A stretch of 64,000 nucleotides of DNA. Origin: Acidimicrobiales bacterium (GTDB lineage: Bacteria > Actinomycetota > Acidimicrobiia > Acidimicrobiales > DATDAH01). The notes beneath the pieces are model-generated. The model worked only from the letters and a program-made list of their open reading frames with translations, made no database searches and was not told the origin of the DNA. Location of the stretch: contig JAEUJM010000018.1 of NCBI GenBank assembly GCA_016794585.1, positions 62,001 through 126,000 on the forward strand. Reading direction: 5' to 3'. Position 1 is the first letter of the stretch. Each line of letters opens with the position of its first letter. The position numbers and the translations under genes are program-made. Below are positions 24,401 to 27,422 of the stretch, one piece after another.

Positions 24401-25039
24401 TCAGCCCGGGAGCGCCGCTCGCACCTCGGCCAGGAAGGGGCCGAGGACGGTGCTGACCTGCTCGGCCGCCACGGCCGGTGGCACCGTCGGGACGGTGGCA
24501 TGGCTGATGGCGAGTCGGACGAGCAACTCGCACACGAGCCGGGTCTCGGTGACCGGGAGCTCGGGCCAGTTGCCGAGCACGAACTCGGTGAGACGGTCGG
24601 TGCTCGTGAGCAGGACGGGCAGCCCGGCGGAGCTGGCGACGAGGGCGTGGAGGCCCTCTGCGCCGGTCGCGGCCTCGAGGGCACGGACGAGGGGATGCTC
24701 GGCGGCCAGTTCGAGGAACACCCGGAAGGCGTCCTCGAGCGCACCGCCGAGGTCGTCGGAGCGGGCGCCGACGACGCGCTGGATCTCGTCGAGGAACTGC
24801 TCGGACGCCCACAGGACGTAGGCCTGGGCGAGCTCGTCGCGGGAGCCGAATTCGTTGTAGAGCGTCTGGCGGCTCACGCCGGCGGCGCGTGCGACCTCGG
24901 CCATCGTGATCGACCCCCAGGGCCGGTCGGCGGCCAGGTCGTCCATGGCACCGAACACCGTGCTGCGCAGCAGGAGCCTCGACGCGTCGGCGAAGCGCCG
25001 GGGGCCGCCCGCCTCGTCGCCGCCCTCGATCGTGCTCAC
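24401..25039 (-). CDS. TetR-family transcriptional regulator of the alkB operon
   Basis: 212 residues. The N-terminal helix-turn-helix SITMAEVARAAGVSRQTLYNEFGSRDELAQAYV is the TetR signature; the C-terminal half is the helical ligand domain. It begins 10 bases after the stop of alkB on the same strand, the position of the alkane-sensing TetR gene (alkU/alkX) in other actinomycete alk operons. It probably represses alkB and itself, perhaps from the palindrome near 26259. The inducer is likely a fatty acid or alkane product, by analogy. Confidence 0.88.
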   Translation of the reverse strand: MSTIEGGDEAGGPRRFADASRLLLRSTVFGAMDDLAADRPWGSITMAEVARAAGVSRQTLYNEFGSRDELAQAYVLWASEQFLDEIQRVVGARSDDLGGALEDAFRVFLELAAEHPLVRALEAATGAEGLHALVASSAGLPVLLTSTDRLTEFVLGNWPELPVTETRLVCELLVRLAISHATVPTVPPAVAAEQVSTVLGPFLAEVRAALPG

Positions 25040-25049
25040 GGGGTCGACC

Positions 25050-26249
25050 CTACGCCTCGGCCCCGTGGGCGGCGAGGAGTCGCGCCCGCCGGCGAGGGTG
25101 GACGTTGACCCGGGTCAGGTCGCCGTCGTAGAAGGCCAGGACCCGGGGGTCCATGACCTTGCGCCACAGCGGCGGGACCGTGGCCAGCACGACCATCCCC
25201 GCGTAGCCCGTGGGCAGCTGCGGCACGTCGTCGAAGTGGCGCAGCGTCTGGAAGCGGCGGGTGGGGTACGCGTGGTGGTCGCTGTGGCGCTGCAGTTGGT
25301 ACAGCAGCACGTTCGAGGCCACGTTGCTGGCGTTCCAGGAGTGCTCGGGCCGGCAGCGCTCGTAACGGCCGTTCTCCTTGCGCTCGCGCAGCAGGCCGTA
25401 GTGCTCGATGTAGTTGACGACCTCGAGCAGCAGGAACCCGAGCACCGCCTGCACGACCAGCCAGGGCGCCACGGCCCAGCCGAACACGGCGATGAGGCCG
25501 CCGAAGAGGACCGCGGTCATGGCCCAGGCGTTGAGCACGTCGTTGCGGGGGGACCAGAAGCGCTCACCGGCGCGTCGTCGTCGGTCACGCTCGATCTCGA
25601 GGGCCGAGCGGACGGCGCCCACGACGGTCCGGGGCACGAAGGCGTAGAAGCTCTCGCCGAAGCGCGAGGACGCCGGGTCCTCGGGGGTGGACACCCGCTG
25701 GTGGTGGCCCCGGTTGTGCTCGACGTAGAAGTGGCCGTACGCGGACTGGGCGAGGGCGACCTTGGCCAGCCACCGCTCGAGGGTGGGGTGCTTGTGGCCG
25801 AGCTCGTGGGCGGTGTTGATGGCGATGCCGGCCACGCAGCCGACGGTGACGGCGAGTCCCAGGGCGGCGAAGGTGGACAGCTCGCCCGAGGCCCACATCG
25901 AGCACGCCCACACCAGCGAGGCGAACTGGAGGGGAAGGTAGGCGTAGGTGAGGCGGCGGTAGTAGCGGTCGGCGTCGAGGGCGGCGGTCGCGTCCTCGGG
26001 AGGGTTGAGGGTGTCGAGGCCGAGTGCCTGATCCAACAGGGGCATCAGCCCGAAGACGAGCACCGGGCCGATCCACCAGAAGCCGCTCCAGCCGGTGAGC
26101 GCGACCAGACCGCCGGCCACGAAGGGCAGGAGGGGCACCACGAGGGCGAGCGGCCAGAACGCTCGGCGAGGGTCGCGCCAGGAGCGCGGGGCGGGGGTGT
26201 CGTCGTCGTCGGTCAGGGGGCCGGATGCGTGGACATCGGAGAGCGCCAT
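25050..26249 (-). CDS. alkB: membrane alkane 1-monooxygenase AlkB
   Basis: 399 residues with about six membrane segments and all AlkB histidine boxes: HELGHK, EHNRGHH, LQRHSDHH, and the HYG motif NYIEHYGLLRE. AlkB hydroxylates n-alkanes at the terminal carbon using a di-iron site with electrons from rubredoxin. No rubredoxin is fused and none is encoded next to it, unlike many actinomycete alkB genes, so electrons must come from elsewhere in the genome. ATG start with AAGGTG about six bases upstream. First gene of an alkB-tetR operon. Confidence 0.94.
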   Translation of the reverse strand: MALSDVHASGPLTDDDDTPAPRSWRDPRRAFWPLALVVPLLPFVAGGLVALTGWSGFWWIGPVLVFGLMPLLDQALGLDTLNPPEDATAALDADRYYRRLTYAYLPLQFASLVWACSMWASGELSTFAALGLAVTVGCVAGIAINTAHELGHKHPTLERWLAKVALAQSAYGHFYVEHNRGHHQRVSTPEDPASSRFGESFYAFVPRTVVGAVRSALEIERDRRRRAGERFWSPRNDVLNAWAMTAVLFGGLIAVFGWAVAPWLVVQAVLGFLLLEVVNYIEHYGLLRERKENGRYERCRPEHSWNASNVASNVLLYQLQRHSDHHAYPTRRFQTLRHFDDVPQLPTGYAGMVVLATVPPLWRKVMDPRVLAFYDGDLTRVNVHPRRRARLLAAHGAEA

Positions 26250-26255
26250 GTCCGC

Positions 26256-26287
26256 ACCTTGTACAAATCAGACCCATATGTCAAGAT
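26256..26287. promoter_or_regulatory. divergent alkB / ferritin-like gene promoter with TTGTACAA palindrome
   Basis: On the alkB strand a perfect -35 hexamer TTGACA (26284-26279) stands 15 bases from a TACAAG-like -10. On the other strand TTGTAC (26259-26264), 17 bases, then CAAGAT could serve the divergent gene. The 8-base palindrome TTGTACAA (26259-26266) lies across both, a sensible site for the TetR repressor. Element choice is tentative. Confidence 0.4.
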
Positions 26288-26351
26288 GCTTTGCATCCGA
26301 CCGACCTACGTCCAGGTCCGGCTGCACGGCCCGGACGGGAAAGGCCCACCC

Positions 26352-27422
26352 ATGCACCCCGTCGCCGCCGAGACCGACAACCTCCTCGTCGAGGCCGAGT
26401 CCGTCACCCAGTTCACCTGGGACTACGAGCCGTCGAACGTCCAGCTCACCCGCCTCTACGAGAAGGGCAAGGTGTCCCAGTGGAACGCGACGACTGACGT
26501 CGACTGGTCACCCGACGTCTGCTGGGGTGAGCCTGATCCGTCGCTGAGCGAGGAGGAGCGCGCCATGATCGGCAGCTTCCTCAACCTCGACGCGCCGGAC
26601 TCGCCGTTCGCGGGCATGACCGAGGAACAGCGCGCCGTCGTGGGCTGGGAGCTCCAGGCCTGGATGGTCAGCCAGTTCATGCACGGCGAACAGGGCGCGC
26701 TGGTGGCCACCGCCCGCCTCGTCGAGACGGTGCCCGACATCGAGTCGAAGTACTACGCCGCCAACCAGGTGAACGACGAGGCCCGCCACGTCGAGGCCTA
26801 CGCCACCTACCTGAACACCAAGCTGCCCGGGCACGAGTACGAGATCTCGAAGCCTCTCGAGGCGCTGCTGGTCGACATCATGACCGAGAAGCGCTGGGAC
26901 ATCACCTACCTCGGCATGCAGATCATGGTGGAGGGCCTCGCCCTCGCCGCGTTCGGCATGGGCAACGTGATGTTCAACGACCCGGTCATCAAGCAGATCA
27001 CCGATCTGGTCATGCGCGACGAGGCCCGTCACGTGGCCTTCGGGGTGCTGGCCCTCAAGGAGGTCGTCCCGCAGCTGTCGTCGGCCGAGCTGGCCGACCG
27101 AGAGGAGTTCCTGCTCGAGGCCACCGACCTGATGTACCGCCGCTTCCTGCTCGAGCAGTTGTGGGAGCGCCTCGAGGTCGACGTCGAGGAGGGCAAGGCC
27201 TTCGCTGCCACCAATCCCCTCATGATCATGTTCCGCCAGGTGCTGTTCTCGAAGATCGTCCCCAACGTCAACAAGCTCGGCTTGATGACCCCGCGGGTCC
27301 GCCAGTGCTTCGAGGACCTCCAGGTCGCCCAGTTCGCCGACCACCTCGACACCGCCAGCGAGGAGCTGGCGTCGATCGCCGGCGCCGAGTCCCTCGCCGA
27401 CGTCGCCCGCACCGCCGGCTGA
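26352..27422 (+). CDS. ferritin-like di-iron oxygenase (AurF/R2-like fold)
   Basis: 356 residues. Four metal-ligand helices are visible: an early Glu in FMHGEQGALVATA, NDEARHVEAY, a Glu in MVEGLALAAFG, and MRDEARHVAFGVLAL. Two DEARH motifs are the hallmark of ferritin-like di-iron carboxylate proteins such as AurF-type N-oxygenases and R2-like oxidases. The ATG at 26352 follows GGGAAAGG and gives MHPVAAETDN. It is divergent from alkB and shares its promoter region, which suggests a common inducer and a role in alkane or fatty-acid oxidation; that is inference. Confidence 0.82.
   Translation: MHPVAAETDNLLVEAESVTQFTWDYEPSNVQLTRLYEKGKVSQWNATTDVDWSPDVCWGEPDPSLSEEERAMIGSFLNLDAPDSPFAGMTEEQRAVVGWELQAWMVSQFMHGEQGALVATARLVETVPDIESKYYAANQVNDEARHVEAYATYLNTKLPGHEYEISKPLEALLVDIMTEKRWDITYLGMQIMVEGLALAAFGMGNVMFNDPVIKQITDLVMRDEARHVAFGVLALKEVVPQLSSAELADREEFLLEATDLMYRRFLLEQLWERLEVDVEEGKAFAATNPLMIMFRQVLFSKIVPNVNKLGLMTPRVRQCFEDLQVAQFADHLDTASEELASIAGAESLADVARTAG

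What the first reader, a model, noticed from the sequence alone, without database searches (positions are those of the whole stretch)
25050..27422. alkB-tetR operon divergent from a ferritin-like di-iron enzyme, without rubredoxin
AlkB usually needs rubredoxin, often encoded next door in actinomycetes. Here the neighbours are a TetR regulator and, divergently, a protein with two DEARH motifs. A TTGACA box and the palindrome TTGTACAA lie in the 102-base shared gap. The di-iron protein may act on alkane or alcohol products, or serve a different electron route.
Basis: partly seen in the sequence, partly recalled or inferred. Interest (0 to 1): 0.5.

Follow-up and report, generated by a model that had tools for sequence, protein, structure and literature searches.

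The report
Alkane oxidase without its rubredoxin partner
This bacterium, like nearly all sampled relatives that have the gene, carries a normal-looking alkane-oxidising enzyme but no detectable rubredoxin, the small iron protein thought to power it, so another electron carrier (probably a ferredoxin) must do the job; the neighbouring di-iron enzyme sits next to the same predicted switch but is not its usual partner.

Summary
In detail: alkB (25050-26249, -), tetR (24401-25039, -) and a divergent 356-aa di-iron protein (26352-27422, +), with no rubredoxin. The missing rubredoxin is the real finding. None was found in this 98.4%-complete genome, in 297 of 298 sampled genomes of its order, or in 18 of the 19 of those that carry alkB. 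It is present in 41 of 47 other alkB genomes searched. The window operon is an AlkX-type alkB-rubA-tetR operon without rubA: Solirubrobacterales loci have rubredoxin between the two genes, the window has 10 nt. The di-iron protein has an R2/R2lox fold. Elsewhere its family usually has its own upstream tetR (40 of 57 loci) and it is not generally linked to alkB. Best reading: a fatty-acid-responsive AlkX repressor controls alkB and probably the divergent oxidase, and AlkB takes electrons from a ferredoxin. Donor and co-regulation are inferred. New variant of a known kind.

The parts
25050..26249 (-). alkB, alkane 1-monooxygenase, 399 aa, no fused rubredoxin or ferredoxin
   Evidence: the only match in the genome
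25040..25049 (-). 10-nt junction alkB/tetR, where Solirubrobacterales loci carry a rubredoxin gene
24401..25039 (-). tetR of AlkX/AlkU type, probable repressor of its own operon
   Evidence: 5ydp E 3e-29; 5d1w = Rv3249c E 1.5e-28; in a set of 29 AlkX-type TetRs, 99/98
26259..26285 (.). predicted AlkX operator, inverted repeat TTGTACA-N13-TGTCAAG in the divergent gap
26279..26284 (-). TTGACA, likely -35 box of alkB, inside the operator
   Evidence: sequence; the consensus promoter scan found no full promoter
26352..27422 (+). R2/R2lox-fold dimetal (di-iron type) protein, 356 aa; ligands by motif E113, E143/H146, E194, E224/H227

Best explanation
An AlkX-controlled alkane hydroxylase operon (alkB-alkX) whose rubredoxin gene is missing, in an order that has almost no rubredoxin. 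AlkX (TetR) binds the inverted repeat 26259-26285 over the alkB promoter and is released by long-chain fatty acids, the products of alkane oxidation. AlkB keeps most of the rubredoxin docking surface but is reduced by a small 3Fe-4S/4Fe-4S-type ferredoxin (Fer4_15/Fer4_13) fed by an AlkT-like NAD(P)H reductase; a ferredoxin-reductase pair on contig C14 is the best candidate. The divergent gene encodes an R2/R2lox-like dimetal oxidase, probably acting on a fatty or hydrophobic substrate, which lacks its family's usual own tetR and would be co-controlled by AlkX through the shared operator. Shown: gene identities, absence of detectable rubredoxin, operator class by sequence, predicted fold, ligand conservation. 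Inferred: repression and fatty-acid induction, ferredoxin as donor, co-regulation, substrate.
For: Rubredoxin PF00301: 0 in this genome, 1 of 298 in the order, 1 of 19 alkB genomes of the order against 41 of 47 others (Fisher p 3e-10, not corrected for kinship). The single positive, G096, carries alkB-rubA-rubA-reductase, so the method sees rubredoxin in this order. Fourteen rubredoxin-less AlkBs from 13 genomes form one clade (SH-aLRT 98, quick tree). Solirubrobacterales operons have rubredoxin between alkB and a TetR 43-48% identical to the window's. Operator: ACA-N13-TGT repeats with at least 6 of 7 paired arm bases in 23 of 102 alkB upstream regions against 0.2 in shuffles; a matrix from those 23 puts 26259-26285 at 25.8 bits, next 6.3; 3 palindromic sites in 5.49 Mb, reversed control 0. 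Ferredoxin: in G140 a Fer4_15 ferredoxin starts 3 nt after the alkB stop; Fer4_15 in 19 of 19 alkB genomes; 10 of 78 wider loci carry such a ferredoxin just downstream of a rubredoxin-fused alkB (9, L190 by motif). Docking residues: 5 of the 6 Arg equivalents kept, the sixth His. Di-iron protein: VIA-align Z 23.1 to R2lox 7qbp; own tetR upstream in 40 of 57 loci of its family, none at the window.
Against: No ferredoxin lies beside the window alkB, and the C14 pair is on another contig; Fer4_15 ferredoxins are common and one here sits beside a P450-like gene (by eye), so 19 of 19 discriminates little. The G140 ferredoxin itself is closer to other genome ferredoxins than to C14. The operator form was first noticed by eye in 11 upstream regions, the window among them, and only then counted; the window's right arm is imperfect (4 of 7 pairs, so it is not among the 38 sites listed), and no consensus promoter was found. 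Docking arginines may be kept for other reasons: Arg226 is R/K in only 13 of 25 rubredoxin-negative AlkBs against 77 of 79 others. The alkB/di-iron pairing is not conserved, and no operator of this class stands upstream of orthologues in G010, G094 or G090. The window AlkB's place on its tree is unresolved and its TetR is a long branch. Six of 47 genomes outside the order also lack rubredoxin, so the absence is not unique to the order.
Confidence: 0.55

Rival explanations
1. A rubredoxin exists but was missed: it lies in an assembly gap or is too divergent for PF00301.
For: 51 contigs, 98.4% complete; many relatives are drafts in tens to hundreds of contigs; a weak sub-threshold match at E 0.197.
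Against: 297 of 298 genomes of the order lack it, 226 of the 227 good-quality ones; the same search finds it in G096 and in 41 of 47 other alkB genomes; in the window the rubA position itself is only 10 nt long.
Confidence: 0.1
2. The alkB/di-iron neighbourhood is a chance juxtaposition; AlkX controls only alkB-alkX, and the di-iron gene has an unrelated task.
For: 0 of 80 wider alkB loci and only 1 other of 20 order loci have a relative nearby; five orthologues are not on a contig with a listed alkB; no AlkX-type operator upstream of three of four tested orthologues, and a weak 6.8-bit site in the fourth.
Against: A 102-nt divergent gap with one predicted operator ending 66 nt before the oxidase ATG; the oxidase lacks the own tetR that 40 of 57 loci of the family, and its three closest full-length orthologues, have.
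Confidence: 0.4
3. AlkB here is not an alkane hydroxylase in use: a relic, or an enzyme for another lipid substrate that takes electrons from a different partner.
For: No rubredoxin; no alcohol or aldehyde dehydrogenase was noticed beside it (neighbouring ORFs read by eye only, no family scan).
Against: Intact frame, nine His ligands, 373 ungapped aligned positions to FtAlkB; an operator and an AlkX-type regulator kept.
Confidence: 0.1
4. The di-iron protein itself is the electron donor or an essential subunit of AlkB.
For: Only adjacency.
Against: An R2/R2lox oxidase fold with an oxygen-activating type of ligand set, not a one-electron carrier; the other 17 rubredoxin-negative alkB genomes of the order show no such arrangement in the flanks read, apart from the looser case in G249.
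Confidence: 0.03

Closest known systems
alkB-rubA-rubB-alkX/alkU operon of Mycobacteriales (M. tuberculosis Rv3249c = AlkX, PMC9430723 abstract; Dietzia alkW1-alkX, PMC8784404 passages)
   Same: alkB and a TetR of the AlkX family; in the window the TetR follows alkB on the same strand, as in many of these operons; an inverted-repeat operator upstream of alkB
   Different: rubredoxin and reductase genes are absent; a dimetal oxidase faces alkB across the operator
AlkBS ('single') alkane monooxygenases of Rhodococcus (PMC11854999, passages)
   Same: alkB without a neighbouring rubredoxin gene
   Different: that class is defined by the neighbourhood; here rubredoxin is missing from the whole genome, whereas 41 of 47 wider alkB genomes searched have it
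Alkane degraders reported to lack rubredoxin (Alphaproteobacteria and Dokdonia MAGs, PMC10654063, passages)
   Same: alkB without rubredoxin; an alternative carrier is needed
   Different: other phyla; a disulfide-isomerase-like CXXCG protein was proposed there; here the absence spans a sampled order and the lead is a ferredoxin
Rhodobacteraceae MAGs with alkB but no annotated rubredoxin reductase (PMC8941889, passages)
   Different: Alphaproteobacteria; the passages concern the reductase, with no order-wide survey
Ferredoxin-reductase-AlkB fusions (PMC8918992, parts 1-3 of 5 read)
   Same: an AlkB driven by a ferredoxin
   Different: here the parts are separate genes and the candidate ferredoxin is of the small Fer4 kind (the fusion's cluster type was not checked)
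R2-like ligand-binding oxidase (R2lox) and R2 proteins
   Same: predicted fold (Z 23.1, 254 residues, 3.1 A) and a four-carboxylate two-histidine ligand pattern
   Different: below R2lox and R2 family cut-offs; about 15% identity; an own family, usually in a tetR operon

Membership tests
AlkB alkane 1-monooxygenase (protein family) | Nine-His motif set and full-length similarity to solved AlkBs | tested here: met
AlkB alkane 1-monooxygenase (protein family) | Terminal alkane hydroxylation | not testable with these tools
AlkBGT (rubredoxin-dependent) system | Rubredoxin encoded in the genome | tested here: not met
   (PF00301, draft assembly)
AlkBGT (rubredoxin-dependent) system | Arg patch for rubredoxin docking (FtAlkB R143, R148, R169, R215, R284, R287) | tested here: inconclusive
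   5 of 6 kept in the window (numbering mapped by me); position 226 relaxed in other rubredoxin-negative AlkBs
AlkX/AlkU TetR repressors | Nearest solved relatives and tree position | tested here: met
   (long branch)
AlkX/AlkU TetR repressors | Operator of the alkB-upstream class | tested here: met
   (by sequence only)
AlkX/AlkU TetR repressors | Release by C10-C24 fatty acids | not testable with these tools
   reported for Dietzia AlkX in PMC8784404 (passages)
R2-like ligand-binding oxidase (R2lox) | Family sequence cut-off | tested here: not met
   NF006200 38.3 bits against 194
R2-like ligand-binding oxidase (R2lox) | Fold and six metal ligands | tested here: met
   ligands assigned by motif on a predicted model, metal not tested
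Ribonucleotide reductase small chain (R2) | Family cut-off | tested here: not met
   PF00268 23.8 of 33.6 bits
Aldehyde-deformylating oxygenase (ADO/CADO) | Family cut-off | tested here: not met
   TIGR04059 21.2 of 222.65 bits; PF11266 22 of 28
AurF N-oxygenases | Family cut-off | tested here: not met
   PF11583 24.9 of 29.6 bits

The most novel reading that the evidence does not exclude
The order (Acidimicrobiales, by two record titles) holds a lineage of free-standing AlkBs that abandoned rubredoxin and are driven by small Fer4-type ferredoxins shared with P450s; in the window an R2lox-like dimetal oxidase has been recruited into the AlkX regulon, exchanging its own TetR for the alkB operator, to act on a product of alkane oxidation.
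Probability: 0.3. Interest if true: 0.68.

Novelty: new variant of a known kind. Interest (0 to 1): 0.5.

Why it matters
AlkB is the marker enzyme for environmental alkane oxidation and is usually described as rubredoxin-dependent. An order in which rubredoxin is almost absent while alkB persists makes the electron-donor question directly testable, and warns against scoring such genomes as incomplete alkane degraders. The comparative operator model gives a search pattern for AlkX regulons across Actinomycetota, and the window gives one candidate new regulon member, from a dimetal oxidase family that no Pfam or NCBIfam model reached here.

Tried and rejected
Conserved alkB/di-iron pair: rejected. 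L090 (G249) looked like a second case, but there two tetR genes lie between the paralogue and alkB, one of them the paralogue's own (L060). Consensus sigma-70 promoter scan of 26200-26400 found nothing. Whether AlkX-type operators precede orthologues of the di-iron gene: not in L035, L110, L111; only 6.8 bits in L109, just above its shuffles (5.6); a 10.8-bit site upstream of the paralogue L036 (shuffles 4.5). Residue differences between rubredoxin-positive and -negative AlkBs follow the tree too closely to interpret. The other two genome sites of the operator pattern lie upstream of a Rieske-oxygenase-like gene and an FAH-like gene (named from sequence by eye, no family scan) and may belong to other TetRs. 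No PHROG family for the window di-iron protein. ADO/CADO chains appear in Foldseek's list (rank 17) but not among the 50 rows shown by VIA-align, which excludes nothing.

Selection told: the 50 loci given to one search were 50 of 80, chosen by me to include all wider loci without an adjacent rubredoxin motif (a bias against the result); 2 were not held and 2 shared a genome, leaving 47 genomes. In one search rows not searched genome-wide were labelled positive because a rubredoxin motif lay beside alkB; L173 was labelled positive without such evidence; L181 (contains L096) was dropped. L149 equals L097 and was dropped from trees and upstream counts. The shuffles permute two-base blocks. The TetR profile was built from 16 TetRs, two of them (L035, L036) from upstream of this family; its 57 loci are those fetched as best matches, the window's own included, and one (L069) has only 135 nt of upstream sequence. 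L202 and L255 were left out of A3 for a stop near the end of the match. My simple gene caller missed alkB in L083 and L088, which were read by hand.
Full report
1. What is there. Minus strand: alkB 26249-25050 and tetR 25039-24401, 10 nt apart. Plus strand: a 356-aa protein 26352-27422. The divergent gap is 102 nt. AlkB matches the solved AlkBs 8f6t (E 8.8e-141, 373 positions without a gap) and 8sbb (E 7.3e-118), keeps all nine His ligands, and is the only match in the genome. The window is G000:C18:62001-126000 of a 5.49-Mb, 98.4%-complete assembly in 51 contigs.

2. No rubredoxin, and not only here. PF00301 finds none in this genome. Of 298 sampled genomes of the order, 19 carry alkB; of those 19 only G096 has rubredoxin, in an alkB-rubA-rubA-reductase cluster. 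Of all 298, again only G096 has any (1 of 298; 1 of 227 good-quality genomes). Outside the order, 41 of 47 alkB genomes searched have it. The six without are Williamsia CHRR-6, two Micromonospora, Actinoplanes sandaracinus, Nocardia CDC159 and one MAG. On an AlkB tree of 104 rows, 14 rubredoxin-negative AlkBs of the order (13 genomes) form one clade (SH-aLRT 98; quick tree) and the label needs 7 changes against 22.6 in shuffles. The window's own place is unresolved. The order is Acidimicrobiales by inference: L097 (G140) is identical to a record titled 'Acidimicrobiales bacterium', and L096 (G018) lies within one titled 'Microthrixaceae bacterium'.

3. An AlkX operon that lacks its rubredoxin gene. 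The TetR's nearest solved relatives are 5ydp and 5d1w (Rv3249c). Rv3249c is named AlkX, a direct repressor of alkB-rubA-rubB (PMC9430723, abstract). Dietzia AlkX is reported to be released by C10-C24 fatty acids (PMC8784404, passages); that 5ydp is Dietzia AlkX is recalled, not tested. On a tree of 68 TetRs the window protein falls in a set of 29 (99/98), 26 of which lie downstream of alkB, apart from the 13 TetRs upstream of alkB in its own order (100/100); it is a long branch. Solirubrobacterales loci L117, L118 and L120, with TetRs 43-48% identical, carry rubredoxin between alkB and tetR: by motif in L117 and L118, by ORF and Pfam in L120. The window has 10 nt there. Loss of rubA is the simplest reading; the alternative is that the ancestor never had it.

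4. The operator. The form ACA-N13-TGT was first noticed by eye in 11 upstream regions, the window included. Counted over 102 alkB upstream regions, inverted repeats with that core and at least 6 of 7 paired arm bases occur 23 times at spacer 13 (shuffled mean 0.2) and at most 3 times at any other spacer from 8 to 19. A matrix from those 23 sites, the window not among them, scores 26259-26285 at 25.8 bits; training sites score 15.9-33.7 and the next window site 6.3. With composition-matched matrices, 15 of 20 loci (window plus 19 order loci) exceed all 50 shuffles, the window among them; L083, L089, L097, L099 and L100 do not. In the tetR-alkB loci the best site lies about 650-950 nt before alkB, which places it near the start of tetR (inference). 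The degenerate pattern occurs at 3 places in the whole genome, control 0. The window's right arm is imperfect (4 of 7 pairs). The alkB ATG lies 10 nt from the repeat, so its mRNA may be nearly leaderless (inference); no consensus promoter was found.

5. The divergent protein. No Pfam or NCBIfam model reaches its cut-off. A profile search of PDB sequences gives R2-like oxidases (about 1e-5) and, more weakly, aldehyde-deformylating oxygenases; the first-ranked designed helical bundle matches only the repeated DE-RH helix. The AlphaFold2 model (pLDDT 79.8, pTM 0.80) aligns best to R2lox 7qbp (Z 23.1, 254 residues, 3.1 A), with R2 proteins tied within one Z unit. E113, E143, H146, E194, E224 and H227 are invariant in 22 and in 45 aligned sequences. 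The family is common: 190 of 298 genomes of the order (E <= 1e-60). In 40 of 57 fetched loci a TetR gene precedes it on the same strand, including its closest full-length orthologues in G010, G264 and G094 (3-27 nt); the window, one of the other 17, has none. Plasmid relatives sit beside fdxA in Rhodococcus opacus and among carrier-protein and AMP-binding genes in Streptomyces. It reads as an oxidase whose regulation, not its enzymology, may be tied to alkB here.

6. Who feeds AlkB. The reviewed donor arrangements are rubredoxin, fused rubredoxin and fused ferredoxin-reductase (PMC8918992, parts 1-3 of 5). AlkG docks on six Arg of FtAlkB (PMC10113152, passages); five of the six equivalents are Arg in the window, the sixth is His (numbering mapped by me). 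In G140 a 65-aa Fer4_15 ferredoxin starts 3 nt after the alkB stop. Ten of 78 wider loci have a small ferredoxin just downstream of alkB (9; L190 by motif; L122's hit is not a credible ferredoxin), and all ten AlkBs have a fused C-terminal rubredoxin motif. Fer4_15 ferredoxins occur in 19 of 19 alkB genomes, 7 matches in this one. The best local candidate is the C14 pair: a 63-aa Fer4_15 ferredoxin about 60 nt ahead of a Pyr_redox_2/Reductase_C reductase that is 36% identical to the reductase beside the G096 rubredoxins. Among 5 of the genome's 7 matches compared, C14 is the top hit for 7 of 10 alkB-adjacent ferredoxins; two go to C13b, and the G140 one to C9. This is a lead, not a demonstration.

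7. Prior art. Alkane oxidation without rubredoxin was reported for Alphaproteobacteria and Dokdonia (PMC10654063, passages). That ferredoxin and its reductase might replace rubredoxin and its reductase is already stated for Rhodobacteraceae MAGs (PMC8941889, passages). AlkBs without a neighbouring rubredoxin are classed as AlkBS in Rhodococcus (PMC11854999, passages). Searches for Acidimicrobi + alkB + alkane (19 papers), Acidimicrobi + rubredoxin (5 papers) and rubredoxin-absence phrases (none, 5 papers) showed, from listings and the passages read, none that reports the order-wide absence. Only the open-licence PMC library was searched.

8. Verdict. The di-iron protein is not a conserved partner. 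The window is best read as an AlkX regulon with a replaced electron donor and one local addition.

Noticed in passing
L249:2911-3984 and other viral-contig loci L200-L279: 175 relatives of the di-iron protein were confirmed on IMG/VR contigs, 80 of them fetched; in L249 (250-kb contig) it sits next to genes matching tail-fibre and pre-neck-appendage PHROGs, while the di-iron proteins of L249, L208 and L230 match no PHROG, so phages seem to carry it.
   Followed up: partly
L002, L006, L057, L058 and 36 other loci: A widespread tetR-(di-iron oxidase) operon in the order; the window protein reaches no Pfam or NCBIfam cut-off.
   Followed up: partly
L129, L140, L142, L144, L152, L157, L171, L174, L190, L193: A small Fer4-type ferredoxin gene lies just downstream of alkB with a fused rubredoxin motif, mostly ahead of a tetR (L190; none found for L193), two electron carriers side by side.
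   Followed up: partly
L131, L143, L176, L184, L191: Williamsia, Micromonospora, Nocardia and Actinoplanes genomes also carry alkB without any PF00301 match.
   Followed up: no
L292 site 6936 and L293 site 6164 (G000 C26:66935, C32:105163): The only two other genome sites of the operator pattern lie 67-77 nt upstream of a Rieske-oxygenase-like gene and an FAH-like gene (named by eye).
   Followed up: partly
upstream regions of 21 of 104 alkB genes, e.g. L126, L135, L193: The palindrome GTCTAGAC stands in 21 of 104 alkB upstream regions and occurs only 22 times in all loci then held, often about 18 nt after a TACAAA-like arm, perhaps part of a longer AlkX operator.
   Followed up: no
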